This document shows positions 14,968 through 36,873 of a DNA stretch of 64,000 nt, piece after piece. Position 1 is the stretch's first letter; each line of letters starts with the position of its first letter. The notes below the pieces were generated by a model, which saw only the letters and a program-made list of their open reading frames with translations, had not been told where the DNA came from and ran no database searches. This DNA is from Closterium sp. NIES-65 (Eukaryota > Streptophyta > Zygnematophyceae > Desmidiales > Closteriaceae). The stretch lies in contig CANXME010002486.1 in NCBI GenBank assembly GCA_948144175.1, positions 2,728,001 through 2,792,000 of the forward strand. Direction: 5' to 3'. A program made the translations under genes and the position numbers.

Positions 14968-17900
14968 ATGGAGGTGTTTTTCTGGGCGGTGTTCGGCGCG
15001 CTGGTGGTGCTGTGCGCGGGGCTGGAGGGCAGCAAGGGGCAGCGCGACAAGCTGCAGACGTCGCCCGCCTTCGAGTCCTTCAAGAACAACTACCTCCTCG
15101 TCTACTCGCTCATGATGGGTACGGGTTATAACGAGCATCATTATGATGCCTAGGGCTATAACGAGTGTTCGTGATGATGGCGTGGATGAAATGAGGCATA
15201 TTTGTGTGTTCTGAACAATTCTGCCCCTATCTCTTCGTCGACCTCTCTTCGTCGACCTCTCTTCGTCGCCCCTATCTCTTCGTCGCCCCTATCTCTTCGT
15301 CGACCTCTCTTCGTCGACCTCTCTTCGTCGACCTCTCCTCGCATTGCCTTGCTTCCAATCCATTGGCCGTTCTTGCATTGCCATCGCCTTCTTGCATCCA
15401 TCCGTCAAGGCTGCTCTCGCCATCCTCCTTCCACCATGCACCCTGCTGCCGTGGCAGCGGGCGACTGGTTGCAGGGGCCGTACGTGTACGCGCTGTATCA
15501 GCACTACGGGTACGACAAGGGCGACATCGGCCGCCTCTTCATCGCGGGCTTCGGCTCCTCCATGGTCTTCGGCACCATCGTCGGCTCGCTGGCCGATAAG
15601 CAGTGAGCATGCTGCATTTGGCAGGCGTTACCGAGCGAGCCTGTGCAAAGGTCATGTGTCACATCACTAGACTGTACTTGCGGGGTTGTGCCTTGCACTC
15701 TCACTGCCCCTCCCTCTTCCCTCTTGCTCCCTCGAACGGTCCTTGTATTCATTATAGGATATTACAAGGTAGATGCAAACACATGCAAGACAAACATACC
15801 ACCTTCTACCCACCCCAGCATCAACTACCCCCCCCCCACCCCCCCCCCCCCCCGCCCCCTCTTGCTCCCTCTCTCTCTGACGTTCTCACTCGCACACGCG
15901 CACACAATCACATGCCCTCCCCCTCCCCCTCCCCTCCCCCGCACGTGCATGGCTGGCCGGTGGGCAGTGGGCGGCGGCGCGCATCACTGACATACTGTGG
16001 GGTGTACGTGCTGTCGTGCCTCACCAAGCACTCGCCCGACTACCGCCTGCTCATGCTGGGCCGCGTGCTGGGCGGCATCGCCACCTCGCTGCTCTTCTCC
16101 GCCTTCGAGAGCTGGCTCGTGGCGGAGCACTTCAAGGTACAGCAAGTCGGGTTTTGGTCTTGTGCTCTTTTCGGTCCGCCACATGCAAGCCTGGCTGCAC
16201 CACCCACCCGTTCTGCCACTCTGTACAGCCCATTTCGTGTCTCTTCTCCGTCCCCTCCCATGCGCCCTTCCTCCCCGTCCCTCCCAGCGCGGCTTTGAGG
16301 CGCAGTGGCTGTCGGTGACGTTTTCGTCGGCCATCTGGCTGGGCAACGGGCTCATCGCCATCCTCTCAGGGCTGCTCGCCAACTCGCTCGTCACGTCGCT
16401 GGCGCTGGGCCCCGTGGCCCCCTTTGACGCCGCTGCGCTCGTGCTGCTGCTGGGCGGCGCCATCATCACAGCCACATGGCCGGAGAACTACGGCGACAGC
16501 ACCGACTCCAAGGGGCTGCTCGCCCAGTTCCACGCCGCCGCCTCCGCCATCGCCTCAGGTGGGCTGCCATCGCCTCAGGTGGGCTGCCATCGCCTCAGGT
16601 GGGCTGCCATCGCCTCAGGTGGGCTGCCATCGCCTCAGGTGGGCTGCCATCGCCTCAGGTGGGCTGCCATCGCCTCAGGTGGGCTGCCATCGCCTCAGGT
16701 GGGCTGCCATCGCCCCAGGGGGGATGGGGAGGGGGTAAGGACGACGTAGCTACTCAATGGAACAGCGAGCATACGTGCGAGCGAGATGGTGGAGAAAGGT
16801 GAAGATGCGGCCTCGAGACATGGAGCTTGCAGGATGTGGCTGAGAGGAGAGGGGAGGATGAAGAGAAAGTCGTTGGTGTGGGAAATTGAGGTAGAGCATA
16901 TAGAGCTCACGGTTCTTTCATGAAATCACTTGTGAGTTGAGCAGGTCAGGATGGGCTGGAAGTTGAAGGCCATTCTCAATACGATTGGTTGGAGGTTTGG
17001 GAGTCTGGTCAGAATGTTTGGGATAGTGTTGTAACATCCAACCCACCAAAACTAGAACAAGCTAAACTATAAAAGTACGATCCCTTTTCACGCACACGGC
17101 GATGCAAACTCCAAGGCCGCCATGGCGGTCACCAGGAGCTTTACACGTGCCAATGTCCCTCGATTTCTTATCAGTTCTTAAATCTGAGTCTAGATTCGTA
17201 CTCCTTAAGACAATAGGAAGCCGATGGTACACTTTTAATGTTCAAAACACGAACATTGATCATTTGGCCTTATTGTCAGGCACTCTCCAGGCTCTTTTTG
17301 ACAATGGTATCTCAAGGGAACGCGATGGCACCAAGGTTGCTACGGTGGCTATTTCCAAGGTTTTTTCCTCTATGGCACATCGCAAGGCTTCACATTACTA
17401 CTTATTCAAGCACTGGTGGTGGGACAAACACAAGTTTTGGCGGAGGTTGCTGGTTCACTACCCTCACTATCTGTCATCCTCGGCTGGTTTTCTTTCCGTC
17501 TCACGCTTTATCATCATGGCTCCGCCAGAAGGCTCTTCTGCGATCATTGCTCCGGGTGCTGGTCCTCAGGGGAGGAAGCCTGCGGAGGTTCGTCCTGAAC
17601 CTGTCACCCCCAAGACTCTTTTCAATGGCGCGACAGCTCCGCGTGGTGCCGATGAGATCAACGCTTTGTCTGAGCGCACGTCGGCGTTGCGCATTAATGA
17701 CCTGCCAGTCGAAGGCGGGGTCAACGGCGCTGAGGTCAACAAGCCAGTGGCGAACACGTCGGACAAGGGAAACGCAAAGATCCAGGATTTGGAGGATGAC
17801 GGTGGCTACCTCAGCGATGACCCGGATGAGTGTCAAGATCCGGTGGTACTTAACGAGATCGCGGCACAAGCGGGGGTCGCCATCACCCTGCTTGTCCCCT

Positions 17901-20900
17901 TTGCTTGGAGCAAGGAGATCCCGCGCATCATTGTCACCGTCAACCATCTGCTGTCACTGTGGGGCAAGCACATGTCGGGGAACGTTTGCAAGACAACGAG
18001 GTGTCAGAAGCTCACGCCAACATTCCTCTCCAAGCAGCACTTCGGGCGTGTTGAGGTGGTTTTCCTGCAAGAGGCCGATGCGGTTTTCATGAGGAGCAGA
18101 GAGATCGAACACTACACGACGAACGACAAGAAGCTCGTCCTGGGGTGGCAATACCCGGAAAACAAGGAATACCTGAGAGAACGCGCGTCTCACCCGGAGG
18201 CGATTGAAGTGCTGCTTAAGGGGGTGCCGGCGGTGATCTCACCGGCAATGATCATGAAGAATCTGGTGACTGCGATGCTGGTGAAGCAGGGTCGTACGGC
18301 ATTCCTTGACGGTTCTGCTTTCCACCGCGTACTGGATCCGGCGTCAGGATCGGACACAGACATGATAAAAGGGCTTGTTTTCAGGCACCTGGGGTATAAG
18401 TACAAATGGTGGCACAAGGTCACTGACCGTGTTCATGGTATCGAGCTGCTGGTGTCGTTCCCTGCGCTCACATGCGGTTTCTGCAGCGGAATGCACATGT
18501 CGTGTTTTCATCACAATTATGTTACAGAGAGGCAAAACAACATTGGGAACTGGAGTCTGACGCTGCTTCGCGCCCATGAGTTCAATGGTAATCACCCCCG
18601 CTTTCACCTTGTTTTCAGGCGGTCGCAGCAACGGGCCTCCACGCTTACTTCTGTGTCATCCTCCCCCCGAGCAGCTGCCTCTTTGAAGATTACGCCGGCG
18701 GTGAAGACCCTGTTGGCGGATCCGGCAATGGCATTTACTTCTACGGGTGGAGTCTGGGAGGAGTGGGTGTGTGCTCAAGAGGAGTGTGGGAAGGCCCATG
18801 GTACCAGCTTCGAGACGGCAGTGGAGCACGTCCAGACGATTCGTCACGGCACCGGGTTGCTCAAGGCAGGAGCGGCAACGCGTGTGAGCATGGGGAAGCA
18901 GAACGTGGCTCAGGTCTGGAAGGAGTTTGGGCTGTGATTGGTCGGTCGGGAGGGTGGCTGCTTCGGAGATTATCAGCGCCAGGAACGTTAACACGGAAAG
19001 AGGAGGGGAGGTTGTCTTTCTCAGCCACGTTACGAGGGGTGGCAGTTGCAATACCGGTCGTAGCTCTCATGTGCTGTACTGTGACTAGTAAAGCCCGTGG
19101 ATGCGAGGGGCTCCCCAGCAAGGGGTTTAATGAGTAACATACCGAATCTCACCATCTGCGGGGTCAATGTGAACGGCCTTGGCAGCAGCGGCAAACGAAC
19201 TAAGAACCGGCGATGGCTGCGAACAACAGCAGACATAATGGTGCTTTCCGACAGAAGGATTAAGGGGGATCATAATTTCTGGAGCGAGATCAAACCGAAA
19301 GTGTGGGCTGCGGTCGGTCCGAGTCAAGCGGCAGGCGGAGTGGCAATCGTGTCGTGTAGAAGGAATATTCGCTTCACAGAAGTCACCCCGGACCCCTCTG
19401 GAAGGGTGTTGGGTGTGACGGTGGAAGGAGGGGAGGGACCTTTCAGGCTGGTCGCGGCTTATCTCCCTGCACAGGCGTGTAACAGGGCGAAGTTTTACAG
19501 GGAACAGCTCGAGCCTTTCATTCAGCTTCAGCCGCAGTCATCGCACCTGGTGGTAGTGGGCGATCTCAACATGATCGCTGACCCGGATTTGGACAAGTCG
19601 CCTGGAGCGGGTTCGGGGAGGGAGAACCAGCGCTTCATTGAGATGTGGCAAGGGCATGACCTTCGTGACGCTATCCGTGTGCTGCACCCCACGGACAAGG
19701 AGTATACCTTCAGGGTGGCTGCCACACTGTCAAAGTCGCGCATTGACAGGGCACTGATGTCGGCGTCGCTGCTAGGTAACCTCGAGGAGGCCCGACATGT
19801 AGAGGTTCCGCGCAAACTTTCCGACCACTGGTTCGCGATCAAGTTACGGCTGAAGTTCGCCTCAGCACGCATATGGCCCGGGGCTCTGGAGGTTCCACGC
19901 AACAAGGAGGAAAAAGAAGGGGGTGAGGAAAACCATTAAGGGGGTTGTGGACTCGCTAGACAAGGCAGGAAGGGAGCCGCTGGAGCGCTTGTTATCCAGA
20001 CTGACGGCGGCTCTAAGGGCGCATGACAAAGAGGAACGAAAGAGGGTGACGGCAACGCAGTTGCACTTGACGGAGGAGGTGGAGAGGATGCGGCACCTGG
20101 TCATGGGGGGGCCGACAGACGATCAGACTTTGGCGCGGTTGCTGACCAAGGAAGAACAGTTAGAAGCCTACCGGGAAAATGAGCGGGAGTTCTTCGCGGG
20201 GCTTACGACGGAGCTGCAGGGGGAAATCTCATCGCCGTACCTGTCGGCGAAGGTGAAGATGCGAAAAGAGCGGACTCTGATAGAAGAGGTGGTTTTCAAC
20301 GGTGAAAGGCACAGAGGCTCACAGGCGGTGCTCAAGGCGGCGTCGTTGTACTTCGAGGAGGCTTTCAGGGAGGTGCAGATGGAACCTCAGCTGGCATGCA
20401 CGGATTTCGCGGTGGACAGAGTTTTACCAGCGGCGGCGGAAGCGGTGGTCAGGCTCGGGGCCCCGTGGGCAGAGCCGGAGGTCAAAGCAGCACTCAAGGG
20501 TTTACCGAGAGGGAAGTCACCGGGGCAGGATGAACTCCCCGCGGAACTTTTCGTGTCTCACTGGGACCTGTTAGGAGGGTGTTTCATGGAGTTCGTAAGG
20601 AATTTCGAGAAGACGGGCTTGCTGCAGGAATCACTGACGACAGCGGTGACGGTTTTGTTGCACAAGAAGGGGGATAAAGACCGGCTAACAAATTACAGAC
20701 CAATTCTCCTCACCACAGTCTACAAGGTGCTGGCGAAGGTTATGGTGAACAGGATCAAAAAGGAGCTACACCATGTCATCTCCAAGGAGCAGCACGGGTT
20801 CGTACCAGGGCGCAGTCTGGCGGATGCTGTGTCGGTGGTAGCAGACGCGATTGAAGCGGCAGACAATGATGGCGAGGACTGGTACCTCTTGCTCGTGGAC

Positions 20901-23900
20901 TTCCAGAAAGCCTACGACACGGTGTCGCGGCCTTTCCTCTTCCGTACGTTGGAGAAGCTCGGGCTGCCTGCAAATTTCATCAAGTGGGCGGAAGGTCTAC
21001 ACCGGGGGTCAGGGACGAGAATCGCGATTAACGGCTGGTGCGGGGAAAAAGTGGAGATGGAGCGGGTGGTGAGGCAGGGGTGCCCATTAGCTCCCTACCT
21101 TTTCCTCTGCGCTTTGGAGCCACTTTGTGCGGAGATCGCGAGGAGAGGCTTGGGGGTCGGGACAGATGGGGCGAGTCCGATCTCGTATGTGGGGTACGCG
21201 GACGACACTTCCCTAATCCTTCGGGGGGCCGATCAGATCCGCTCGGCGGCGGCAGCGCTGGAGTGGTTCGGCGAACTGTCTGGCCTGCGCATTAACCAAG
21301 ATAAGTCGATCATCATGCCGATGGGGAGGAACAAAGGCAAGACGTCATTGCCCGGGGTGACTTACAAGTGGGCGGAAGACGGGGTTCCTGAGCGGCTACT
21401 GGGGGTGTGGATAACACCAGACGGCAACGCAGCTCCGTCCTGGGAGAAAGCGTGGGAGAGGGGGAGGAAGGAATTAATCAAGTGGGAGAACCAGCATCTG
21501 CTGACGGCGGCAAGGGTGACAACAGCTATATCATGCCGATTCTCCTCTTCCAGGCTCAGATTTATCCGCCGCCAGAGGAGCTGTGGGCGAAAATCCGCAA
21601 AACATGCGATAACTACATTTCCAAAGGCCAGGCGACTGCGGAGAAAATTTTCGTTCTGTGGAGTGGGGAACTGGCCCGACTGCCGAAGAAGGAAGGCGGC
21701 TCATCGACCCGAAAGCCAGACTGGACAGCATGGCAATTCGCACGGTGGGGAAGTACCTGACAGAGCAGGACGCCACCAAGAGGTGGTTGACTGAGAAGGC
21801 GGCAGCAATGGCGCAAGGGGTGGCGACCCTTTTCGCTCACAAGTCGGCTGGCAACCACTGGGAGAAGGGGAACCAAAGGTGGAAGGCGATCGCAGTAATC
21901 TTCTGGGAGTCGCCCTTTGCGGAGCTCCCGGCGCCGACGAACGGTTGGGAGGTCGAATGGGAACTGCTCAGTTTCAACCGGCGCATCATGTTCCGAGGGG
22001 GGAGCCCTTTCGGGAACCGGAAAGGAGCGGCAGGTATTCTGAAAAGCAGGCTGGGGGATTTGCTACAGACCAAAGAGGATGGGAGCAGACCAAAGAGGAT
22101 GGGAGCAGACCAAAGAGGATGGGAGCAGACCAAAGAGGATGGGAGCAGAGAAGTCAAAGACATCGGGGCACTAAGGATACTTTTCGGTAGTGTGGCGACG
22201 GCAAGGTGGGCAAAGAAGGCGTCTGAGGCAATGCCGGCGGAGTGGAAGGAGATGTTGGCAACGCCGAAATCGGCGGAAGCAGTGACGGCAGCAGCGAAAG
22301 TGGTGAGAACAGTCCTGGCGCGCACGCAGGAATTTCTCTACTGGACGGTACGGGGCGTCAAGAACGGAGAGGTGGCGACAGACCATTTAGACTGCTCGGA
22401 CGGAATAAGCCTGGTGGCGCCACAGAGGCCGTACGCGGTCTCATTCCCCGTCAGGAGCGTGACGCCTGTGGCGGTTAAAGGGGGCAAGGTACTCGGGGCT
22501 ATGGGGGAGGCGAAGGTTAAGCTCTGCCAGACCGCACTGGTAGAAGATAGCCTGAGGCGGCTGCGCCGAAGGTAATCAGGAAGGCGCTCGTGGGGCCAAA
22601 AACAGAGTCAAGGAGGAGGCATGAGTGGGAAGAAGAGTGGGGGAAGAAAATAGATTGGAAGGCGGTGAGGGAGAGGAGGGACTCACTGGTGATCCCTTAC
22701 AGGGCGCGTGATGTGGTGCTGCGGATGCACAGTAAGAACCTGCAGGTGGGGGGGAGACTGGTTTTCCTGGGCCCCAGGGGCTGCTGCCCGCACTGCGGAG
22801 AGCCAGAAACCCTCGACCACTGCATGCTCACTTGCCCAGTTATACAGCCGGTGATTGGCGCGCTACTAAACTCACTGAGGATGATGGACCCCGCGGATCA
22901 GACACGCTCATTGGGGGACATGCTCTTTCGGGAAGGGGCCACGAAGTCCGGTTTTCCGGGGGCAACATTGACAGCAGTGACGATGCGAAGAATTCGGTTG
23001 GCCAGAGTGGATGGGGTGTACAGGAAGGAGAAATTCCAGCGGAGAAAGGTGGCGCGGGCGGCAATCTACGATTTCATGCGGCATGCAAGACTCTACAGAG
23101 CGGAAAAGCTGAGGAAGGCAGGGGGAGGCAATGGCCAGGGGGAGGCAATGGCCAGGGGGAGGCAATGGCCAGGGGGAGGCAATGGCCAGGGGCAGCCACG
23201 GGACCCTTGGGGCGGCCTGGCAGGGGACGAGCGTGCGGCGATAGCGAGGATATGTGAAGCAGGTGATCAAGCCACGTGGAAGATCGACTTCCTTTCCATC
23301 TGGCAAAACCCCAAGACTTTCCACCGCCCACCGTAGACATGTACAGGGGGGAGGCTCCCGGGTTTCGGCTAAGGGTCGCCATGTCCCTCCAGAATCCAGT
23401 TACGACTGTGAATGTATTTGCATTGTATAGTGCAGACTCATTCAAAAAAAAAAAAAAAAAAAAAAAAGTTTATAAAAGTACAATACAATCACTGTCATGC
23501 GAGATGGGATTGTATTTCCAAACGATTGGAGTGCTGGCAACGAGCCAGTGCTCAGCGGCAGAAAGTTATGGGCATGGCCCAGTGTATACGCATGAGCAAG
23601 GGTCGGGCCCAGCAGGATGTGAAGTACAGTTGAAGTGACCAGCAATGTATTCAAGTCGTGTTCCATACTCTTCTCGATGTGAAATATGAGTGCACGGCAG
23701 ACACGGCTTAGCTGAGCCGGCAGCATTCCGCGCTGGTCCGCGACTGAGGTGGCTTGTGCCTGGCTGGCTAGCCAGCGGGCAGCCCGCGGTGGGAAGACTC
23801 AACACGCTGTCGGGCTGGCCTCTGTCCTAACCTGGGCGCTGAGCATGACAGGATTGGGGGAGTTGGGATGGTAACAGGGAGGAGCGCACAGTGCGTCATA

Positions 23901-25873
23901 ATGGGGTGTAGGGCAGGGATCCCAAGGGCTCTCACACCTGCCACTGTCATGCCACCACTGCAGTACCACATGCACCACTGCAGTACCACATGCACCACTG
24001 CAGTACCACATGCACCACTGCAGTACCACATGCACCACTCCAGTACCACCTGCACCACTGTAGTACCACATGCAATTCCTCACTCCTATGCGTTACCCGT
24101 GCATGTCACGGGCCACGGCCCATGGCTATGTGTCATCCTTCCCACACAACCCACCATTCAATGCGGCCTGGCACGTGTCATCGCGGGTCGCTTCTTGAAT
24201 CACTCCGCCACTGTGCTGCTTGGCGTCATTCACTCCGCCACTGTGCTGCTTGGCGTCATTCACTCCGGGCCAAATGCACATTCTGGAAGCCGCATTATCT
24301 CTTGGCATGTGCATTTCTCAATTCTTCTTCTCTGCCGTGCGTCTGCCCTCGTTGCCACCCCCGTGTGCCACGTGTGAGGCAGACGAGAAGATAGCACTGC
24401 TGGGAGCCATCCAGTCGCTGTTTGAGGGCAGCATGTACACCTTTGTCTTCCTCTGGACGCCCGCCCTCGCCCCCTCGGACCAGCGCATCCCACACGGCTT
24501 CATCTTCGCCATCTTCATGCTCGCCTCCATGACCGGCTCCTCCCTCGCCGCCCGCCTCATGGCGCGCCCCGCCCTGCGAGTGGAGCTCTACATGCAGATC
24601 GTCTTCGCCGTCTCCTCCCTCTCCCTCCTCGTCCCTCTCTTCACCTTCGTCAGTGCTCCTCTGCGCCCCACCTGCTTCCCCCGTATCTCCCTCTCCTGCA
24701 CTCGATCTGCACTCGCTCTGTGTGATACACTGCACTCCCTCTGTGTGATACACGGCTCACTCATCGCCTTCACTTATTGTTGTTTATTTCTCGACTTTCC
24801 ATTGTCAAGGGGTTGTTCTATTCAGGTGCTCTCTCACCTAAAGTTCCCTATTCGTCTCCTCGTTGCACCACTACACATCCCCAACCCCTCCTTTCCGCCG
24901 CATCACCACTCCCTGCGCCTTTCCAGCCATCTGACTGTTGTGTCTCGTACTTAATTTGCCTTACTGCCCGTCCCTCCGCCCATCCCTCCGCCCATCGCGG
25001 CTACGCGGTATGCAGTTTGTGTTGGAGCCGGTGGCGCCGGACGGGGGAGGCATCACGCGCGGGGGGCGAATGCAGCTGGTGGGGTTCTGTGTGTTTGAGG
25101 TGTGTGTGGGCGTGTTCTGGCCGTCCATCATGAAGATGCGCTCGCAGTTCATCCCCGAGGAGGCGCGCGCCACCATCATGAACTTCTTCCGCATCCCCCT
25201 CAACTGCTTCGTCTGCATCGTGCTCTACAATGTATGTGTGCTCTACAATGTATGTGTGCTCTACAATGTATGTGTGCTTTACAATGTATGTGCGCTCTAC
25301 AATGTATGTGTGCTCTACACTGTATGTGTCATTCACACCCATCTCCCCCAATCCTCATTACATTCACCCCTCCTCTTCTCCCTCACCCCTCCCCGACCCT
25401 GCCACCCTCCCCCCTCTCCCCCCCTGGCGGCAGGTGAGTGCATTCCCCATCACAGCCATGTTCGGCATGTGCTCCATCTTCCTCGCCATGGCTGCTGTGC
25501 TGCAGCGCCGCCTCTTCGCCATCTCCTCCCCGAGCAAGCCCGGCACGCCCGCCTGCCACTGTGAGTCGTGGGATCATGCGTTACTCATTGCTTTTCTTTT
25601 GTGAAAGTGTGCCGCCATGTGTGTGTGCATGTGCAATTTGTGTGCATGTGTGTCATCCACATGCATGCCTACAGTTTGTACAATGTAACGAAGTTGGTGT
25701 GTATGTACAGTTCGTGTCACTCTTGTGACTATGACTCTGTTTTGTCTACGATGTTTTCTGCATCCGGTACCATGCTTTTTCCACTCTGCTTTCACTACAT
25801 GCCCATGTGCACTTGTGCAGCAAATGCCGATGAGAATAACATGCGGGAGACAGAGCAAGAACAACTGTTGTGA
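14968..25873 (+). CDS. MOT2: Molybdate-anion transporter, MFS superfamily (MFSD5/MOT2 type)
   Basis: Eight exons: 14968-15118, 15458-15602, 15968-16136, 16288-16558, 24383-24648, 25016-25231, 25434-25560, 25821-25873. All borders are GT-AG, phases agree, and the sum is 1398 nt, 465 residues plus stop, close to the recalled length of plant homologues. It is a polytopic membrane protein of the family that imports molybdate in Chlamydomonas (MOT2). Visible features are an N-terminal membrane helix (about residues 2-20), the conserved FKNNYL...GDWLQGPY block (41-58), MFS motif A GSLADKHGRRR (93-103), LLGAIQSLFEGSMYTFVFLW in exon 5, and FWPSIMKMRSQ in exon 6. Exon 8 is tiny and ends in EQEQLL, an acidic dileucine type of sorting signal. 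Intron 4 is 7.8 kb because of a LINE. The donors of introns 4 and 6 are tandemly duplicated. Identity is strong; exact splicing of exons 7-8 is less sure. Confidence 0.9.
15228..15342 (+). repeat. Short tandem repeat in transporter intron 1
   Basis: Irregular units of TCTCTTCGTCGACC and TCTCTTCGTCGCCCCTA repeat about seven times inside the 339-bp intron. They do not touch the splice sites. Confidence 0.8.
16546..16720 (+). repeat. 20-bp minisatellite spanning the exon 4 splice donor
   Basis: The exon 4 end GCCATCGCCTCAG and the intron start GTGGGCT form a 20-bp unit repeated head to tail. Eight perfect copies of TCAG|GTGGGC place GT donors at 16559, 16579, 16599, 16619, 16639, 16659, 16679 and 16699; a ninth copy is degraded. 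Each unit begins with GT and ends with AG. Using a later donor adds 20 nt per step and so shifts the frame except at every third unit. The first donor gives the phase needed for exon 5 (Ser-Asp-Glu-Lys). Confidence 0.95.
17102..18937 (+). CDS. LINE ORF1 protein
   Basis: One uninterrupted frame of 611 codons. The real start may be a later ATG at 17518 (MAPPEGSSA), since the first 140 residues look unlike a LINE ORF1 and the linker after it is typical. The middle (about residues 260-430) is a globular region that may be an RNA-binding fold, unassigned. Near the C-terminus (18763-18873) is a C2H2-type finger, C-X4-C-X13-H-X5-H, at CAQEEC...HVQTIRH. ORF1 proteins coat LINE RNA; nucleic-acid binding is inferred from the finger. 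ORF2 starts about 190 nt downstream. Confidence 0.75.
   Translation: MQTPRPPWRSPGALHVPMSLDFLSVLKSESRFVLLKTIGSRWYTFNVQNTNIDHLALLSGTLQALFDNGISRERDGTKVATVAISKVFSSMAHRKASHYYLFKHWWWDKHKFWRRLLVHYPHYLSSSAGFLSVSRFIIMAPPEGSSAIIAPGAGPQGRKPAEVRPEPVTPKTLFNGATAPRGADEINALSERTSALRINDLPVEGGVNGAEVNKPVANTSDKGNAKIQDLEDDGGYLSDDPDECQDPVVLNEIAAQAGVAITLLVPFAWSKEIPRIIVTVNHLLSLWGKHMSGNVCKTTRCQKLTPTFLSKQHFGRVEVVFLQEADAVFMRSREIEHYTTNDKKLVLGWQYPENKEYLRERASHPEAIEVLLKGVPAVISPAMIMKNLVTAMLVKQGRTAFLDGSAFHRVLDPASGSDTDMIKGLVFRHLGYKYKWWHKVTDRVHGIELLVSFPALTCGFCSGMHMSCFHHNYVTERQNNIGNWSLTLLRAHEFNGNHPRFHLVFRRSQQRASTLTSVSSSPRAAASLKITPAVKTLLADPAMAFTSTGGVWEEWVCAQEECGKAHGTSFETAVEHVQTIRHGTGLLKAGAATRVSMGKQNVAQVWKEFGL
22066..22145 (+). 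repeat. 20-bp tandem repeat inside LINE ORF2
   Basis: Four copies of a 20-bp unit (CAGACCAAAGAGGATGGGAG). The unit is not a multiple of three, so each copy changes frame. It lies between the reverse transcriptase and the zinc-binding tail. Confidence 0.93.
23124..23192 (+). repeat. 18-bp tandem repeat near the LINE ORF2 end
   Basis: Almost four copies of GGAGGCAATGGCCAGGGG. The unit keeps the frame and would code a Gly/Gln/Met-rich repeat just before the end of ORF2. Confidence 0.93.
23952..24072 (+). repeat. 20-bp minisatellite in intron 4, downstream of the LINE
   Basis: About six copies of CAGTACCACATGCACCACTG, the last ones slightly changed. It lies about 310 bp before exon 5 and does not touch the acceptor, although each unit contains CAG. 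Confidence 0.93.
24201..24260 (+). repeat. 30-bp tandem duplication in intron 4
   Basis: Two perfect copies of a 30-bp unit beginning CACTCCGCCACTGTGCTG, 120 bp upstream of the exon 5 acceptor. Confidence 0.9.
25223..25330 (+). repeat. 18-bp minisatellite spanning the exon 6 splice donor
   Basis: Six copies of CTCTACAAT|GTATGTGTG, where the bar marks the exon 6 end. GT donors fall at 25232, 25250, 25268, 25286, 25304 and 25322; the sixth copy has one change before its donor. The unit is 18 nt, so later donors would insert in-frame hexapeptides (VCVLYN) in a membrane helix. The first donor matches the conserved family sequence VLYNV. Confidence 0.95.
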
Positions 25874-26161: not shown

Positions 26162-26169
26162 ATGAGAAC

Positions 26170-27013: not shown

Positions 27014-27085
27014 ATGAGAACAAGTTATATTGAGAAAGCTTCCTTACTCTTATTTGTTGGCATCGTTCTCATTACAACTGACTTA

Positions 27086-27589: not shown

Positions 27590-28125
27590 CATTACAACAT
27601 TTGCATCGAGATTGAACATAAGCTAGTGTATATCACTAGCTAAGATATATCTCCATCCAAGTGGCATTAGCAAGGCGTTTTACGCTGAGGTGGGTGGTGG
27701 GCATGATGAGTGAGCCGTTGAAAATGGAGAAACGTGGGTGCGGGGAAATGAACACCAACCCACGATTTTTGTAGTTGGAGAAGGTCGTTTAGCGCGCTTC
27801 GGCAATGCCAATTGTGCAGTACAAACAGCTTTGCTTTCACAATACACAACTACAAATAGGCGATGGGAATAGCGGTGGAGGGGGGCATTTCGGAGAGAGA
27901 GCTAAAACTGACGAGGTGAGCGATGGGGCAACGACTCCATCGAGGGTCACGTGAGGGTAGGGGAGAAAAAGAGGATGACATGAATGTTGTTTATGATCCG
28001 TCGCTTTGAGACCTTGCTATGAATTCAATTCTCAAGTAAACGCAAATAAAGTCGAAAACGTCTAGCAGCTGCATGACTAGAATGATGGAGAAAGTACAAG
28101 TATCAGGGCATAGAATAGTTGGAGT
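27590..28125. other. Unassigned DNA between the MITE and Copia C1
   Basis: About 540 bp with no long frame, repeat or recognisable domain. The join to Copia C1 near 28126 is abrupt, so C1 is truncated here. Confidence 0.5.
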
Positions 28126-28615
28126 TGGTGCCTCCTGTACTTTCTTTCCATTACCACCCTCTGCAGCTGCCTCTTCTCATTCCTCCCACACACTAGGAGT
28201 CAGGTCCAGCTGCATGGTGATCTGCTCCATTTGCTGGGACACCCTGGCCTCCGGCTGTTTCTCCCAGCTCCCATACATCATGCCCTAAACAAACTTCACA
28301 TCCCTGCTGTCAAACAACACACCCTTGGAAGGCTCCCACAGCAGCCATCCCTTGCTCTCAGCAGCCATCCCCAAATGCACTCACCAGATTGCACACGACC
28401 CCAACTAACTGGGGTAGGTCTTGGGGACGTGGGAGACTGCCATGCAACCGAACACCCTCAGCATGTCCACCGGCGGCTTCCTCCCAAGCCACCTTTCCAA
28501 CGGCACCCACGAGTCATCCCCAACCTTTGTGAGTACCCTGTTCCTAGCGATGGTAGCGTGCCGAACAGCATGGGGCCACATCAAGTTGCCCAACCCAGAT
28601 TCTATGAGCAGCGCC

Positions 28616-30802
28616 CTAGCTGTCTCCAGAATTGTCCGGTTCGCCCGTTCTGCTACACCCGTTGGACTGTGGGGTGTAAGCCGTGGTCAGCTCCCTCTGG
28701 ATGCCCTGCTTCTTGAGCCAGGCCGTCATCTCAGCTCCAAGGAACTCACCACCCCGATCTGTCCTAATCCGCTTCACCACACACTCCGCTTGCTTCTCCA
28801 CGAACGGCAGCCAATCGTCCCGAATCGTGGAGGCGGCGTGATCTTTCTGCTTCAGCGGATACGCCCATTTTATCCTGCTCCAGTCATCCACTATGGTTAG
28901 GAAGTACCGCTCCCCCTTGTGCCCTTGCACCGGCAGCGGCCCCACCAAGTCCATGTGGACCAGCTCTAACCGCTTTTTGCTCCTGCCAGCCACACTATGG
29001 AAGGGGAAACGGGTGAACTTTGAAAGGAGGCAAATTTCACAGTTATCATTGGGTGGTTGTCCGTTCAGCTTCAAGCCCTGAACGGCTCCATCCTTCTCCA
29101 GCTGCTTCAGTAAAGGCATTGCCACATGCCCCAAACGTCGGTGTGCCGTTGCCCAATCCGTCTCCCCAGATCTGGCCGACACTTTCACAACAACCCCTCC
29201 CACGACATTGCAACCCCCCTGGGATGCAGACCCCTCTCCAACCTGACCCCCACCGTGCCACGCCAGCGCCGGCAGCTGCCACATAGATCTGTACACGTCC
29301 TTGCTCTCGTGCAGATCCCAAAGCACCCGATTGCCCAGCTTCTCCTTATAAGTGCGAGCCCCATCCGTGTTGGTGTTCACCCCAGCCTTGCCAAGCTTAC
29401 GGAGGGAGATAAGGTTGGCCTTCAGGTCGGGGACGAGGAGAACGTCGTGTAGCACCACCGGCTTGCCATCCGCTCCCTTAAACGCAGCTCGTCCCGCACC
29501 AGCCACCTTCAACATGTGTCCAGAGGCAGAGCACACCTCGTTAATCGGTGCAGCGCGTACGTCGTCCACCAGATCCTTGCGCGGTGTCATTGTCCAAGCA
29601 GCGCCTGTGTCCAACACCCAATAGTCCAGGGGGTGCAGCTCTGCTCCAACCTTAGCAGATGCTTCTCCTTGCTCCCCCTTGTCTCCCACATGGAAGTATT
29701 GGCCCCCGGTGTGCTCCTTCTTCTTCTCCGCACCGCCGTTGCCCTTCGGGTTGTTGTCGGACGAATCAGCGACCATGTTGGCGCCGTTTTTCTGGTTCCT
29801 CTGCGCGCCGCCATCCTGGTGACGATTCTGGGGGGTCCATCCATCGAGTTTCTTATAGCACAAAAACCAAGGGTGCCCTTCCTTCTCACAATACCAGCAA
29901 CTCCCTTTCATTTTGCCACCAGCACCCAACTTGCCCCCACGTCCAGATTTCGCACCGCGACCACAACCGGTACCTCCTTGTTGGTCGTTGGAGTCGTCGT
30001 CTTTCTTTGCACCGCGTCCAGCACCACCGAAGCCACGTCCTTTGCCACGTCGGCTCCCTTGCATCCCGTAGCCGCTGCTGCCGTCGTATCCACCCCTCAG
30101 TTGGCGGCGACGGAAGTCCTCCTCTAGAATCTTCGTCCGCACCCTCTCGAGCGTCCACAAGCTCTGGTTCTGCGGTTGGCTCAATCCGCTCATGAATTGA
30201 AGCCACGATTTCGGCAGCAGCGAGAGCATCTTCAAGCACTTGGTCTGCCTCGGGTCGGTGATTCCCGCGATCGCCAGCTTCGCGTAGAGATCACGCATCT
30301 TGTCCTGGATGGGTTGCACCGGCTCTCCCTCGCTTAGGCGCAACGCGGACAGCTCCCTCTCCATCATGAGCGTCGCAGCGACGGATGTAGGGGCGTGCAT
30401 CTCCTTCAACACCGTCCACGCCTTCGGACCGCACTCAACCTCCGGCAGCAGGTGCATGACGTGGTGACGCTGGTTCAGCTCCAAACTTTGCGACATCAAG
30501 TAGTAGCCAGCCGAGGCGCGCTCTTCCCAATCTTCCTGAAGGGCGGGGTCGCTCGGTCTAGGCTCCTCCCTAATCATTAGTTTCAGCAAACCGATCTGAC
30601 GGAAATAAAGTTGCATTTTCTAGGCCCAATCATCATAGCCCTCACCATTGAACTTCTCGACGGTGAAGTTTTTCAGCACCTCCTTGATCAGCGAGCCCTG
30701 GCTTCTTCGCGCTCCCATTGGCGCAGAAACACCAGAATCATGGCTGCCGCTACGATCTTAGGTTGACGATTCACCAGCTTCCGCCGAGGTGTTGCCCGCC
30801 AT
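28616..30802 (-). pseudogene. Copia C1 gag, protease and integrase (fossil)
   Basis: On the minus strand: gag (start at 30802), a CCHC knuckle (CWYCEKEGHPWFLC, near 29860-29900), a protease region with LDTGAAWTM (near 29590), an HRRLGH zinc segment and integrase core with RTDRGGEFLGAE (near 28750). It is the best preserved stretch of C1. About two breaks are seen and the rest of pol is absent. Confidence 0.88.
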
Positions 30803-30848
30803 AGCTACCTATAACGAGGATCACTATAACGCAGCTCTGATACCAGCT

Positions 30849-31941
30849 TTTTGGTGTAAGGGCCTGATAAACTCAAGCTATTAAGACTTTATCAAACATA
30901 AAACCTCTCCTCGGGATCACCTCCAAGGATCCTTGGGTGCCTGGTACAAGACCAGCCCCTATCCTCGGGTCCGAGTTTGTAGAGAGAGGGATCAAGAGGG
31001 ACTTAGTCAAAACAGCAAGAGTACCTTGAACGTCGCGCAGCGTATCGTACAGACCGTTGATCGGATTAAGCTGAGAATTTATTGTATCGAAGCTCGCTCC
31101 AAGAGCTTTAAAATGAACCAAGTTGCCTCGCGAAAAGTTCTGCCATTACGAAGTTATGGCTCGGACAGCGCTTGCCTAGTGTTGGAGTGCTAGCATACTA
31201 GCGTTGACTCGGGTAGCGTTCCGCCGTCGCACCGCGTAGAAACTAAATTCCAGGAAGGGAGGAATTTGCTTGAATCAAATTGCCTATATTGAAGTACAAA
31301 CAGAGAAGGAATAAATAGTTCTAGCTAGCAAGGACCTTGGGAATCAACCTGGGAACAACCAGGGATGATCCCAAATAATTCCAAGCAACAGAACCAACCT
31401 GGCTGGACAAAACAGCAGGTGGTAGGTTGGAAAACAAACTCTGGTTCTGTTTTTCCAACCTGGGAAAACAACAACCAGATTCAGGTTCTAAAAACAGAAC
31501 CTGTTTTGTCTTTGCCCAACCAGCCAAATGCTGGTTCCGCTGGTTTCCCCTGGCCTTGTAGCATGCAGATACAGACAAACAACATCCAACCTTCACCTAA
31601 ATTGTACCCCTATAGTGCCTTCCCTGCTACACTATAGTTAACCAAACAAAACAGTACAATTACAAGTTGGATAGAACTGAATCTGCGCAATCAATTAAAC
31701 CGGACTGCAAAGCTTCCATCTTGGGTTCCTTTGCGAGCTCGTCCTTTCTGCTTGCACTGGTCATAGTGCGTACAATGTTGTGCCGAAGCGCACATTATGC
31801 AAGTACCTGCAAATGCTTCAAGCGAAAATTACGAAAGCAAATAAACACACGAACATACCATTCACACGCAAATGCATTCGCACACGCATACTCGTACAAA
31901 CAGACGGCAGGATGTCGCGCAATGTGAATTTGCACTCAACA
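30849..31941 (-). repeat. 5' LTR of Copia C1 (about 1.09 kb)
   Basis: The LTR ends with TTGGTGTAAGGGCC on the left and TGCACTCAACA on the right (plus strand). The same LTR appears in whole or part at 36874-37696, 37697-38893, 50190-51514, 53726-54046, 55123-56181 and 59542-60635. Confidence 0.9.
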
Positions 31942-32274
31942 GCCATACTGTTGATCGGAGGCCTCGGGGCTGGGCGCGCTGCGCAAGCATCTATCAGCGC
32001 TGATAGACGAAGGCCGTGCAAACGTAAGCCATAGACGCGCGAAGCGCTGCTTTCAAGCGATGGTTTTTCTTCTCTTTGCGGCGTTCCTCGCCTCGAGCCT
32101 CCCTGTGCACACTGAGCAACCCGTTGCATGGATAGACGTGATACAACGTGACTCGATAGTGGGAGGGGGTAAGAAAACGGTGAGATGAAAAAAAGGCAAG
32201 ACTGGAAGCGGAGGCGTAAGAGGGTGCCGTGGCGTTGCAGATTGCTTGAAAACTTTGCACGAGGCGGTCATGTC

Positions 32275-32690
32275 GAAAGGATGGAATGTGAGGAAAGGAT
32301 GGATGGGATGAAAAGGATGGGATGGAATGGATGGGATGGAACGGATGGGATGGGGACGGGAATAGTAGGATAGGATGGAAAGGATGGAGTGGGACGGAAA
32401 GGATGGGGATGGAATGGAACAGATGGTATGGAATGGAAACAATCTGACAGGATGGAAAGTTTGTGAGATGGAATGGAAAGGATCGGATGGGATGCAAGAT
32501 GGATGATAGAAAGGATGGGCTGGGAGGGATGAGATAGATGCAAAGGTTGGAATCATGGGAATGGAACGGTTGGGATGCGATGCGAAAAATGGGAGAATTC
32601 GAAAGGATGGGATGGGACGGAGAGGATGGGGATGGATAGGATCGGATGGAAAGAGATTTCGATGATGGAATGGATGCGATTGGATGGGAC
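32275..32690 (+). repeat. GGATG/GGAAT-type simple satellite
   Basis: Degenerate 5-bp units (GGATG, GGAAT, GGAAA) run for about 400 bp. The copy at about 51845-52170 is shorter, as expected for slippage-prone DNA. Confidence 0.85.
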
Positions 32691-33400
32691 ATCGCAAAAT
32701 CTCTTGTGGGCACAAAATGTACACGGTAGCTTTTCTTGCGGAAAAGCCGAGGAAAACCTTCGGAAAAACACCCAGTGTGAAAGTTGCGAGAATGTCACCT
32801 GTATGGCGCAACAAAATAGCTACAGAAATGTCACTTTCACCCCTCAAATGTGCACACCCACTTGTGTCTCGCGTGTTAAAGAGCGTTACATTGCGGTTTA
32901 GGGAGTTAAGGTCAGCGGCAATTTCGCACAGCCGACGAAATGTTACATGTGTGACTGAAATTTCTCCGATCTGAAATCGAAACGACCAATCAACAAGCAG
33001 CGCGAATGTTACACGCCAACTGTGTTTCCCGAATTTCGTGGTAACGTCGCCAACCAAAACCCTGCTGATTCCACATCTTATGGTTCTGAACCATTCGATG
33101 TGAGAAACAAACCTAAGCCCACCAATCAGCATGATTCCTTATCTCCACGTCAGCTCTGAACCTAGAACCTCTCGAATGTGCTCCAAACCAACCCTTCTTC
33201 TACCTCCTCCTAGCTTTGTGTCTCATTTTCTGCTCTTGTTCTTCTCAAATCTTTGCGTTTTTTTTCTAATTACTAGGCGCGCTGCTCTTCTTTGCATCAA
33301 TCTTTTCTGCCACGATCAGATCTATCTTCCCTAAGTATTCTCGTTTTCTCCTAAAGTCTTATTGCGTCGTTTTTTTCTTTTTCCTTGTGCCATTGTCCAG

Positions 33401-33486
33401 GTTGAATTCCAAATTAAACTGGAGGTCGGGAGCCGTTTTACAACCGTACAACGGGTGTTCGGAGTCACTAAGACGGTCCTTTATCG
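33401..33486 (+). pseudogene. Possible exon with helix-turn-helix, unassigned
   Basis: A pyrimidine tract and CAG precede 33401 and a GTACGT donor follows 33486. The 86-nt exon reads with GSRFTTVQRVFGVTKTVLYR, which resembles the helix-turn-helix of pipsqueak/pogo-type transposases and other homeodomain-like proteins. A second clean GT-AG intron may lie at 33746-33810. The poly-T run sits between them. The same exon is in the second copy (about 52880-52965). It may be a transposase remnant; low certainty. Confidence 0.35.
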
Positions 33487-34098
33487 GTACGTCGACATCT
33501 TGTTTTTTTTTTTTTTTTTTTTTTGCCTAACTCATGACGTACCGTGCTGTGCACGGAATGGAGGGCAACGCTGGGAGTGCGTTCTGTCTTGGTCGGATTA
33601 TGTCGCTTTGTGTGCAGATGTGTATTTTCTTAACGTCGTGTGATGTGCACCTCATTTGCGCGACATTGTATTTATGTCGATGTATTTCGTAAACATGTTG
33701 ACTTATCAAAAGGCACAAGTATTCGTAGTCCACTGCGGCAGACAGGTAAGTGGCCGCAGGTATGTCTACTACTAAATTTGTACTCGCCTGGCTAACATCA
33801 GTTTTTGCAGGTACTACTCCCTGTCTTCGTTGGATTGTGTTTCTGATTTTACGTGTGTTTCAGAACTCCAGGCTCAAGTGGTTGAAAGGGCGTAAATGTT
33901 TTGACTTTGTTGAAGTACCTACAGTTAGATTACTTAGTTGTGCCAGATCATGTTGATTATGGTGTTAGGGCGTTTTGTCAGGTCTGTTGTATAAAAATGT
34001 ACGTATACTAATATAAATTTCTAGATGTACATGCTTAACTCAACTGTCTGCACAAATTATATTGTATGCGCCAATATGCGTCCCAAAATCTGATTGGT

Positions 34099-34162
34099 CC
34101 ACGTGGCATTTGTTTGTCCACTATTCACCTTCACATACGTGGCGTTCAAGCGTCCACGTGGC
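34099..34162 (+). promoter_or_regulatory. Cluster of three ACGT-core (G-box/ABRE-like) sites
   Basis: CCACGTGGC at 34099-34107 and 34154-34162, with TACGTGGC between (34137-34144). In plants such boxes bind bZIP factors. They lie about 350 bp before the LRR gene start. The trio is also in the duplicated copy (about 53578-53641), which has no LRR gene beside it, so function is uncertain. Confidence 0.45.
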
Positions 34163-34674
34163 AAAGGGGTGGCAAAAGGGACTGAAAGCTCGGAGCAGTA
34201 CTGCGCACAGGGTATCTCCATGCATCCATCCATTCGCACGTTATGCATGCCATGCATCCATGCTCGCATCATGAACACCCTGATTCTCCATCCCATGCTA
34301 AGCGGCTGCTCTCTTTCCATGATAATCAGCTGACCTCCTGCCATGCTAAGCAACTGCTCTCCTCCCAAGTCTCCCGCTGTTCTGCTATTCCTATATCCCA
34401 GCCCTCGCTGAGGAGCCAAAAATTGACCGCTCGTGATCACCTCCCTTGCGGTCTGGGCTGGGGCGTTGCTTATCTTCCCCTCCGCTCCTGGTCCAACGCC
34501 CACTCATGTCGCCCTGTACGCTGCGCCTCCCTTCATCCCTCTCTTCCCTTCTTGCTTGTCTTCCAACAGCACCAGCTCTGGCGGCGAGCGCGGGGGCACG
34601 GGGAGTGGCGCCCGCAGGCTGGAGTGGAGGTGGGGACAGCAGCCAAGTGCAAGGGGTGACTTGGGACAGCAATG

Positions 34675-34775
34675 GTTCGGTGGTTGCAATGTGAGGCATG
34701 GTGGTGGCAATGTGAGGCACGGCGGTGGCAATGTGAGGCACGGTGGTGGCAATGTGAGGCACGGTGGTGGCAACT
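34675..34775 (+). repeat. 21-bp minisatellite spanning the LRR exon 1 splice donor
   Basis: Units near GGTGGTGGCAAT|GTGAGGCAC repeat about 4.5 times. The exon ends at 34690, and GT donors follow at 34691, 34712, 34733 and 34754. The first donor gives phase 2, matching the next exon (AT + T = Ile, then DLSN). The unit is a multiple of three, but the first intron bases would bring a TGA stop into frame. Confidence 0.85.
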
Positions 34776-35131
34776 ACGGTAGTAGTGACATGGTGACTTG
34801 CCGTGGTCTGCTGCGGGGTTCCATCTGCGGCTTTCTGGACCCCATCGCTATGCGCACGGAACGGAGGACATGCGTGGTCATGTTTTCCTGTTAGCGTTTG
34901 TCATGTTGTGTTCACCATGCTTCACTAAAGAACGCTTTCTTGTTTGTTCATTGACACACAATACATGTGATGTTTGATGTTATGTCGTATGGGCTTGGCA
35001 TGTGTGGCATGGCTTCTCATGCCATGCCTTACCGTGGTATGCCATATCTTGGGCATGTATCTCTAAGCAGTGACCTGAGCAACACACCGTTGAGTGGCAA
35101 CATTCCCAGAGAGATTGGAAACCTCACCTCT

Positions 35132-35183
35132 CTCACTCTCCTATAAGCCTCACCACCCTCACTCTCCTGTAAGCCTCACCACC
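35132..35183 (+). repeat. 26-bp duplication spanning the LRR exon 2 splice donor
   Basis: Two copies of a 26-bp unit that begins CTCACTCTCCT and continues (A/G)TAAGCC. The first copy ends the 72-nt exon at 35142 but has AT where GT is expected; the second has GT at 35169. Using the second donor would add 26 nt and an immediate TAA stop. Confidence 0.85.
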
Positions 35184-36873
35184 AGCACTCTCTGCACTCT
35201 TATGTGGACCTATCGCCCCTCCTTTATAATGACCGCTCATCTGCTGTCTAAAGTTTCAAAGCTGTTGCGGCCTGCACCCCTTCCACTCTCGTTTTATCCT
35301 CCCTTGGTCCCCTTCCCCTCTATGCGCTGTGTTTCATCCCAAAACAGCAACCTCGCGAACTGCTCTCTATGTGGCTCCATTCCAATCACATTCAGTGCCC
35401 TCACCTCCCTCTCTTCTGTAAGACCCCACTCCCTCCCTCCTTCCATCAGCTCCCTACATTTCTTTCTCCTGCCTTCCTCCCTCCCCTTCCGCCGTCCTCT
35501 GATTCATAGCCTCCCTGCTCCCATCTACCCGTCCCCCTCCCTCCCAGCCTTCCCGCTTCTCCTCCTGCTCTCCGTACCCCATACACTCCATCTCCATCCA
35601 TCCACCTCCCACACCGCCCCCCTCTCTTTCTCTGCCCTCTTTCTCTCACTGTCTCATCCTTTCCTCTTCCGCGCTCCTCTCCCCTCCTCTCTCCATGGAT
35701 CTGCGCCAGAACAGCCTATGGGGCACAACGCCGTTGTTTCTCAGCCTGCTGACGCAGCTCAGGCGCCTGTGAGTGGGCAGTTTGGGAAGCTTGAGAGTTG
35801 CAAGCGTGAGAGACATGAGAGGCTCGGGAGTTGGAAGCATAATAAGTCTATAAAGCGCTCTTCCTTCAGGCACTGCCAGGGACCTGAGGGACAGCTCTCT
35901 CTCATGAATCCATTCCAAAAAGACCTTCAAGTCAACTCAAAGCCCATCTCACTCTCCCCTCTCCATGCCTCCCTGTCTTGGTGCCTTGCCCACTTCTTTG
36001 CGCCCTGCCCATCCGTGCCGTGCCTGCCAGAGACCTGAGCAAACAGCACCTTGCACGGATCCATCCCAGGCGACCTTTGGGTGCTCCCCGAGCTGCGATA
36101 CCAGTGAGACTCAAAATGCGCATGCTTGTGAGGCAGGGTCCCTATTCTGAGACGCCTAAAATATATGAGGCGGATCAAATCCCAGCGGCCTTTGGATGAT
36201 TCTCGTACTGAGTCACCTCTGGGACTAAAAATGCCCATGTTCGTGACACAGATTCCTGGCCGATTCTTGAGTCACTTACAAGAGCCTAGCCTTGGGTTTG
36301 AAGAGTCCTTTTTTCTTACCTGCATCCCTAGTGACAAGGGATGGAGGGGGTTTGTTCATAGCCTAGCCTCCCTCTTCAGCTTTCCTCTCCCTTGCCTCTT
36401 TTACTCTTCCTCTCTTTTCTTTTCTGATAGAGACCTCTCATCCAACCTCATCAACTCGACCGTCCCAGCCTCTTTGGGCGGACTCAAGTCGCTCACCGCC
36501 CTGTAAGCCGCCACTCTCACTCCCATTTCCCTCTGAAAGGCATTGTACTCTCACACACTCCCAAAATGAGCTGCTATGCCCACACGACTAGGAGGGTTGA
36601 TCGGATGGCGTTGAAGGTTCTTGTTCTTGATTGCCTGCAGTGACTTCCACTTCAACAGCATGAACTGCACACTCACTAAACTCATGTGGCTGTAAGTCTG
36701 GCATAATCCATACAACTCTGACACGTGCATGTGACAAATGGTGGCGACTACTTATCAAATACTAGCACAACGCTGAAGGTGCACTTTTCTTGCATCAAGC
36801 TCTAACTGCCTCTACCTTTGTACAAGGTATAGACATTCAGCGTGAGTAGTTTTTCCGGTTATTGAGACGCTTT

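What the first reader, a model, noticed from the sequence alone, without database searches (positions are those of the whole stretch)
14968..36691. Recurrent tandem duplication anchored on splice donors across two genes
Of about 14 donors readable in the window, four lie inside 18-26-bp tandem repeats, while none of the acceptors does. Other short tandem repeats exist (LINE ORF2, introns), so a general duplication bias is part of the cause, but exact overlap with four donors looks more than chance. Possible causes are nicks or R-loops at the start of transcribed introns, or selection for extra donors. I know of no named mechanism for this pattern.
Basis: inference. Interest (0 to 1): 0.88.

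Follow-up and report, generated by a model that had tools for sequence, protein, structure and literature searches.

The report
Tandem duplications spanning exon edges
In what looks like a green alga related to land plants, short stretches of DNA around exon ends have been copied side by side again and again, at both ends of exons rather than only at intron starts, leaving half-exon relics inside introns in the three housekeeping gene families examined.

Summary
The four arrays exist, but the fourth donor has decayed (AT, not GT), and a donor-specific mechanism is not supported. In an unselected set from the same 874-Mb genome (15 chaperonin and MCM loci), short arrays overlap 3 of 49 donors (3.9 expected by random placement) and 0 of 52 acceptors (4.1 expected, P = 0.014). 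Something larger appeared. Of 47 exons, 29 have a copy of their 3' part in the next intron and 34 a copy of their 5' part in the previous intron; reverse complements give 0/47 twice, introns of other genes 0/141 twice. Copies begin or end near the exon centre, reach about 70 bp into the intron, have a unit near 150 bp and mostly keep the splice dinucleotide. A third family agrees. Best reading: a high rate of local tandem duplication, filtered by splicing. Copies across an exon edge are tolerated because the outermost original site still gives normal mRNA; short units fail at acceptors because branch point and pyrimidine tract must be copied too. The filter is inferred; centred breakpoints and partly coding-like divergence of the relics are unexplained.

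The parts
14968..15118 (+). MFS gene exon 1 (from ATG); donor 15119 without array
   Evidence: frame read by eye; boundaries; no repeated edge
15458..15602 (+). MFS exon 2; no repeated edge
15968..16136 (+). MFS exon 3; no repeated edge
16288..16558 (+). MFS exon 4 (Pfam PF05631 MFS_5, E 1.7e-31); ends CTCAG|GTGGGC inside the 20-bp array
16546..16723 (+). 20-bp x 8.9 array spanning the exon-4 donor; at least 13 copies in three near-identical duplicates (C687, C2396, C1459); single copy in paralogues C2293 and C1155
17102..23470 (+). LINE-like element in the intron after exon 4 (limits approximate): long ORFs 17102-18937, 19097-19939, 19923-21794 (reverse-transcriptase-like by eye, motif recalled), 21658-22575; poly-A 23444-23467; own short arrays at 22066-22149 and 23119-23192
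   Evidence: no family search was run on it
24383..24648 (+). MFS exon 5 (PF05631, E 4.5e-35); no repeated edge
25016..25231 (+). MFS exon 6; ends TACAAT|GTATGT inside the 18-bp array (searches used an acceptor one base too early)
25220..25329 (+). 18-bp x 6.1 array spanning the exon-6 donor; 6 GTATGT units here, 7 in three duplicates; in-frame unit VCVLYN (by eye); single copy in paralogue C2293
25434..25560 (+). MFS exon 7; no repeated edge (searches used an acceptor one base too early)
34678..34773 (+). 21-bp x 4.6 array spanning the first donor of the LRR gene (GTTGCAAT|GTGAGG at 34691); copy number differs among related loci
35122..35192 (+). 26-bp x 2.7 array over the second LRR donor; first copy AT, second GT. 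The exon before it matches Pfam LRR_1 only below the cut-off (15.8 against 20.6 bits)

Best explanation
The arrays are young minisatellites in a genome with a high rate of local tandem duplication. Duplications arise both as short units (about 10-35 bp, often many copies) and as units near 150 bp. In genes, what survives is set largely by splicing. A duplication that spans an exon edge leaves the mRNA unchanged if the first donor, or the last acceptor with its complete signal, is still used; the extra copy, half an exon plus a splice site, then lies inside the intron and decays. Short units are viable at donors because the donor signal is short. They are rarely viable at acceptors because branch point and pyrimidine tract (tens of bases) must be copied too; long units are viable at both ends. 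Shown: arrays, half-exon copies, both-ended distribution, unit size, centred breakpoints, copy-number variation, residual similarity of intron flanks. Inferred: the splicing filter, use of the outermost sites, and the molecular cause (repair of nearby nicks or breaks, or nucleosome-sized units).
For: 47 exons from 15 chaperonin and MCM loci: 29 donor-side and 34 acceptor-side copies at score >=50, 28 and 31 of them reaching within 15 nt of the exon edge. Same test, controls: reverse complement 0/47 and 0/47, introns of other genes 0/141 and 0/141. With 60-nt probes at score >=40: 20/32 donors and 25/35 acceptors; reverse complement 1/32 and 0/35, other genes 0/96 and 0/105; exon end against the upstream intron 1/26, exon start against the downstream intron 2/26. 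Third family: 2/2 donors and 2/3 acceptors at score >=50, third acceptor 47. Unit: donor median 155.5 bp, acceptor 149 bp; 64 of 128 exon-related repeat offsets fall in 120-179. Intron flanks were copied and then decayed: 8 of 24 i5 pairs and 9 of 25 i3 pairs beat every control pair, about 1 expected each. Short arrays: acceptors 0/52, 4.1 expected, P = 0.014. Clean young tandem repeats show the same geometry (173 x 2.6, 142 x 1.8, 178 x 1.8, 124 x 11.5, 245 bp x 2.5). Single-copy donors in paralogue C2293 and copy-number differences among duplicates show that the MFS arrays are recent.
Against: The filter is weaker than the duplications. The intron part of acceptor-side units is 52 bp or more in 30 of 31 cases, as the filter wants, but donor-side units show nearly the same floor (45 bp or more in 26 of 28) although a donor needs no such length (copies closer than 15 bp were not sought). 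Short arrays at donors against acceptors directly: 3/49 against 0/52, p = 0.11. Copies diverge in a partly coding-like way: 252 synonymous and 140 nonsynonymous differences in 1285 codons of 45 chaperonin relics, nonsynonymous fraction 0.357 against 0.47-0.55 expected for copies dead from birth. Similarity often stops within a few bases of the splice site even when the exon part is about 95% identical; 16 of 24 and 16 of 25 flank pairs do not beat all controls. Breakpoints gather at the exon centre more than random lengths predict. One MFS paralogue (C2293) has none of these copies at 7 exons. No RNA data were available, so splice-site use is not shown.
Confidence: 0.6

Rival explanations
1. 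Donor-specific mutation: nicks or R-loops at the start of transcribed introns seed short tandem repeats at donors.
For: 4 of 14 donors and 0 of 12 acceptors in the window, P 0.007-0.026; 3/49 against 0/52 in the sample, Fisher p = 0.11.
Against: Donors in the sample carry short arrays as often as random placement predicts (3 against 3.9); duplications with long units hit acceptor sides as often (34/47 against 29/47).
Confidence: 0.06
2. Two-sided hot-spot: duplications initiate at the exon centre (for example at a nucleosome dyad, an Okazaki-fragment junction or a preferred break site) and extend about one nucleosome length to either side, so that exon edges are duplicated by mutation bias and not only by survival.
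For: Copies end or begin near the exon centre on both sides (mean |z/L - 0.5| 0.102 for 31 and 0.121 for 28 copies against 0.21-0.22 under two nulls, no shuffle of 20,000 as low). In 18 exons with both copies the halves are complementary (median gap 10 nt; shuffled 34 and 22, p < 0.0002 and 0.007). Unit near 150 bp. A length floor at donors as well as acceptors suits this better than the filter.
Against: Part of the centring could come from the detection limit for short copies plus selection against near-complete extra exons. No chromatin data. The two halves of one exon do not share divergence (Spearman -0.37, p = 0.13, n = 18), so they are probably not one event. The link of Okazaki ends to nucleosome dyads is recalled.
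Confidence: 0.23
3. Tandem genomic duplication as intron gain: duplication of an AGGT-bearing exonic stretch created these introns.
For: The 20-bp unit contains CAG|GT; the mechanism is described in PMC3443670 (passages read).
Against: The exon-4 intron exists with a single-copy donor in paralogues C2293 and C1155, the exon-6 intron with a single-copy donor in C2293, so the arrays came after the introns.
Confidence: 0.02
4. Assembly artefact or chimaera of two diverged gene copies.
For: Partly coding-like divergence of the relics and centred junctions would suit stitched homologues; strains of this complex carry many duplicated genes and one, NIES-4550, is a hybrid (PMC10407611, sections 7 and 8 read).
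Against: The one CCT2 exon tested occurs with both relics at 100% identity in two contigs, and that search found no separate diverged copy (only its best candidates are scored). Identity of the 36 relics ranges from about 82% to 100%. Clean multi-copy arrays of the same geometry exist (124 bp x 11.5). If the host is NIES-65, Pilon was used for indel errors only (PMC10407611, section 19).
Confidence: 0.06

Closest known systems
Short tandem duplications from break repair (fill-in by CST and Pol alpha-primase at breaks with 3' overhangs, then end joining; PMC8355091, abstract and introduction read)
   Same: Local direct duplications in eukaryotic genomes; a plausible source of both unit classes.
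   Different: What I read does not address exon edges, a unit near 150 bp or exon-centred breakpoints.
Tandem genomic duplication model of intron gain (PMC3443670, passages read; PMC2891723, abstract read)
   Same: Exonic sequence with a splice-site motif is duplicated and splicing hides the extra copy.
   Different: Here the introns are older than the two MFS arrays, and the copies lie next to existing splice sites at both ends.
[quoted passage not shown]
   Same: Exon fragments found in introns of the same gene; reported in more genes than full-exon duplications.
   Different: Here 29 and 34 of 47 examined exons have them, as part-exons on either side, mostly with the splice dinucleotide.
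Intronic VNTR that affects splicing of ABCA7 (PMC5954066, only the start of the abstract in a search listing seen)
   Same: A repeat array in an intron that bears on splicing.
   Different: Human single-locus case; whether an exon part is copied there I did not see.

Membership tests
Short tandem repeat (minisatellite) array | Head-to-tail units with high identity | tested here: met
   98% matches for the 20-bp, 94% for the 18-bp, 93% for the 21-bp and 88% for the 26-bp array
Short tandem repeat (minisatellite) array | Copy number varies between near-identical copies of the locus | tested here: met
   20-bp array 8.9 copies in the window, at least 13 in three duplicates; 18-bp array 6 against 7; LRR array differs among related loci; 26-bp array not compared
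Donor-anchored duplication (finding as given) | Excess at donors over background and over acceptors | tested here: not met
   3/49 donors, 3.9 expected; long units on 29/47 donor sides and 34/47 acceptor sides
Intron gain by tandem genomic duplication | Intron absent before the duplication | tested here: not met
   MFS introns present with single-copy donors in C2293 and, at exon 4, C1155; LRR introns not tested
Exon-edge-spanning tandem duplication | Copy contains exon part, splice site and intron part in the original order | tested here: met
   Boundary alignments; intron-flank similarity above all controls in 8/24 and 9/25 pairs, so the intron part is shown for a minority
Exon-edge-spanning tandem duplication | Extra copy is spliced out with the intron | not testable with these tools
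   No RNA data; inferred
Full tandem exon duplication (mutually exclusive exons) | Complete extra exon with both splice sites | tested here: not met
   Relics are parts of exons. In 11 exons printed, no 5' part is followed by GT; in 2 of 11 (L049 exon 2103, L053 exon 2326) the 3' part happens to be preceded by AG

The most novel reading that the evidence does not exclude
In this lineage, exons are duplicated from their centre outward in nucleosome-sized steps by a chromatin- or replication-guided process, on both sides and repeatedly, so that most housekeeping exons carry half-exon copies in the adjoining introns; at least some of these copies are kept for a time by selection, for example as spare splice sites or as templates for gene conversion of the exon.
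Probability: 0.15. Interest if true: 0.92.

Novelty: new variant of a known kind. Interest (0 to 1): 0.7.

Why it matters
If it holds genome-wide, introns in this lineage grow in good part from copies of their own exons, and the record of duplications around exons becomes a readable experiment on two open questions: what makes short tandem duplications in plant-like genomes, and which duplications the splicing machinery can hide. It would also warn annotators that part-exon copies with intact splice sites sit next to many real exons.

Tried and rejected
A general donor excess: not borne out by the unselected sample. Intron gain by duplication: rejected for the MFS arrays by paralogues. A single event making both halves: the halves are complementary, but their divergence is not positively correlated, so two events with a shared breakpoint zone fit better. 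Spliced alternative use of the halves: in 11 exons printed no 5' part is followed by GT; AG precedes the 3' part in 2. A separate diverged gene copy as source: not found for one CCT2 exon. Mutation bias alone as the reason for many synonymous differences: with strong GC-to-AT bias the expected nonsynonymous fraction is still 0.47, observed 0.357. A spliced-looking relic in an MCM intron may be chance and was not pursued.

Limits of the counts. Exon boundaries were placed by hand. include three sites that belong to relic copies (donor 887 of L047, acceptors 1831 of L049 and 2104 of L053). For one search, 19 MCM exons were hand-placed out of 41 hits, 2 were dropped because a boundary string was not found, leaving 17; one chaperonin entry was removed, leaving 30; several MCM boundaries are 1-2 bases off. 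One search failed on one such string and was redone. In the window, two MFS acceptors were one base early. Recurrence of the exact boundary at 12-60 bp gave 1/49 donors and 0/52 acceptors against 9.6% of control positions. The 10.7% array coverage of the loci includes introns far from exons, so the placement null is the fairer one. Exon edges are compared with intron sequence only indirectly: the intron's first 60 nt recur in 5/32, its last 60 nt in 1/35, interior windows in 68/197, the last probably mostly short arrays; copies of conserved exons are easier to detect than copies of introns. Splice dinucleotides in relics (18 of 19 GT, 21 of 24 AG) were counted by eye; three copies whose alignment does not reach the edge were left out.
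Full report
What was checked. The window lies at G000:C2188:2728001-2792000 of an 874-Mb genome in 2400 contigs. It holds a multi-exon transporter gene (two exons match Pfam PF05631 MFS_5 at 1.7e-31 and 4.5e-35), a LINE-like element in one of its introns (by eye and by ORFs), and an LRR gene that looks degraded (by eye; one exon matches LRR_1 below the cut-off and another matches nothing).

The observation. Four arrays lie over donors, but the fourth donor reads AT in the first copy. Random placement gives P = 0.007 (region) or 0.026 (genic parts) for four or more of 14 donors; zero of 12 acceptors is expected in 23-43% of placements. The MFS arrays are young: the 20-bp array has 8.9 copies here and at least 13 in three near-identical duplicates, the 18-bp array 6 against 7, and the related gene on contig C2293 has single-copy donors at both places. 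The introns therefore predate these two arrays.

An unselected test. To avoid the window's own bias, exons of chaperonins (Pfam PF00118; 8 loci) and MCM proteins (PF00493; 7 loci) were taken from the same genome without regard to repeats. TRF arrays with period 12-60 bp and score of 50 or more cover 10.7% of these 70,015 bases and include 3 of 49 donors and 0 of 52 acceptors. Placing the 70 array blocks at random, mostly outside the known exons, gives 3.9 donors and 4.1 acceptors on average: no donor excess (P(>=3) = 0.77) and a shortage at acceptors (P = 0.014). Donors against acceptors directly give p = 0.11.

What else is there. The same genes show a stronger pattern. The last 60 nt of an exon recur in the next 400 nt of its intron for 20 of 32 donors, and the first 60 nt in the preceding 400 nt for 25 of 35 acceptors, at a score where reverse complements give 1/32 and 0/35 and introns of other genes 0/96 and 0/105. 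Exon ends against the upstream intron and starts against the downstream intron give 1/26 and 2/26. Whole exons against 700 bp at a stricter score give 29 donor-side and 34 acceptor-side copies in 47 exons, MCM alone 8 and 10 of 17; reverse complements give 0 and 0 of 47, other genes 0 and 0 of 141. Of the copies, 28 and 31 reach within 15 nt of the exon edge. A tRNA-synthetase locus (family PF00133; ValRS-like, subfamily guessed) gives 2/2 donors and 2/3 acceptors, the third at score 47. The MFS family is more modest: window gene 2 of 7 donors and no acceptor, C2293 none at 7 exons, C1155 4 donors and 1 acceptor.

Anatomy. A relic starts or ends near the exon centre, usually contains the splice site, and is separated from the exon by about 70 bp of intron (medians 72 and 73 bp). 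Periods have medians 155.5 (donor) and 149 bp (acceptor); 64 of 128 exon-related repeat offsets fall between 120 and 179. In the boundary alignments I count 18 of 19 donor relics with GT and 21 of 24 acceptor relics with AG (by eye; three copies that do not reach the edge left out). The intron flanks keep similarity above every control pair in 8 of 24 and 9 of 25 cases, about 1 expected each, so at least these are boundary-spanning tandem duplications whose intron parts have decayed; the other pairs do not stand out. Eighteen exons have both relics and their inner ends are complementary: median gap 10 nt, against 34 or 22 when shuffled. Centring on the exon midpoint is significant on both sides. 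In 11 exons printed, no 5' part is followed by GT and two 3' parts are preceded by AG. Divergence of the two halves is not positively correlated (rho -0.37, p = 0.13), so they are probably separate events that share a breakpoint zone.

How it most likely works. Local tandem duplication is frequent here: arrays occur in the LINE-like element, in introns and at exon edges. Inside an exon such a change usually harms the protein. Across an edge it need not, if the first donor or the last acceptor is still used. A donor signal is short, so even an 18-bp unit carries a complete copy. An acceptor needs branch point and pyrimidine tract; the intron part of acceptor-side units is 52 bp or more in 30 of 31 cases. 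This would explain why short arrays are seen at donors and not at acceptors without any donor-specific mutation. Against it, donor-side units show nearly the same floor (45 bp or more in 26 of 28), which the filter does not require and a hot-spot at a fixed distance would give. The filter is inferred; no RNA was available. The cause of the duplications is open: fill-in repair at breaks with 3' overhangs is reported for short tandem duplications (PMC8355091, abstract and introduction read), and a unit near 150 bp with breakpoints at exon centres invites a nucleosome or Okazaki-fragment explanation (recalled, untested).

What does not fit. The 45 chaperonin relics differ from their exons by 252 synonymous and 140 nonsynonymous changes in 1285 codons, with 19 frameshifting gaps and 5 stops. 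Relics dead from birth should show a nonsynonymous fraction of 0.47-0.55, from a mutation spectrum of 239 differences between duplicates; the observed value is 0.357. Either some relics were constrained for a time, or exon and relic exchange sequence, or the spectrum used is wrong. Similarity often ends sharply after the splice site although the exon part is well kept. The C2293 MFS gene has no relics.

Artefact? The CCT2 exon tested occurs with both relics at 100% identity in two contigs, and that search found no separate diverged copy, though it scores only its best candidates. Identity of the 36 relics ranges from about 82% to 100%, and young cases are clean arrays such as 124 bp x 11.5. 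An assembly error is unlikely but was not excluded with reads.

Literature. Nine searches, with listings capped at 10-15 papers, showed work on tandem-duplication repair, intron gain by duplication and partial exon duplication, and no title or abstract start describing part-exon copies at both ends of most exons. In PMC10407611 I read the abstract, sections 7, 8 and 19 and 12 passages for exon, intron, tandem, partial and haploid; none of these mentions it. Subscription papers and supplements were not searched.

Noticed in passing
22066-22149 and 23119-23192: Two perfect short arrays (20 bp x 4.2 and 17 bp x 4.4) inside the LINE-like element, so short arrays also arise in mobile-element sequence.
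   Followed up: no
L048:4463-4643: A 25-bp x 7.2 array in a CCT2 intron that begins inside a copy of the preceding exon's end, so the minisatellite seems to have grown from an exon copy.
   Followed up: partly
L022:1783-2698: In MFS paralogue C2288 a 19-bp x 48 array resembles internal exon-6 sequence and is followed by a second copy of the exon end and donor; the exon start with acceptor is also duplicated.
   Followed up: partly
L053:3348-3601: A 19-bp x 13.4 array whose unit GGCATTGAGCAGGTGAGAG resembles the exon end plus donor of CCT3, about 50 bp inside the intron.
   Followed up: no
L055 (reverse strand) 1770-1951: An MCM intron holds a copy of one exon's end followed after 11 nt by a copy of the next exon from its 12th base: it looks spliced but may be coincidence.
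   Followed up: partly
38548-38821: Two tandem copies of a 134-bp unit, 97% alike. Separately, 30851-32056 and 36875-37692 match the same stretch of the duplicate contigs.
   Followed up: no
window 12615-34635 against C687, C2396 and C1459: Long near-identical duplicates of most of the region (about 97-99%), in line with the copy-number variation published for Closterium strains; C1459 shows many more gaps than the others, as in a poorly polished contig.
   Followed up: partly
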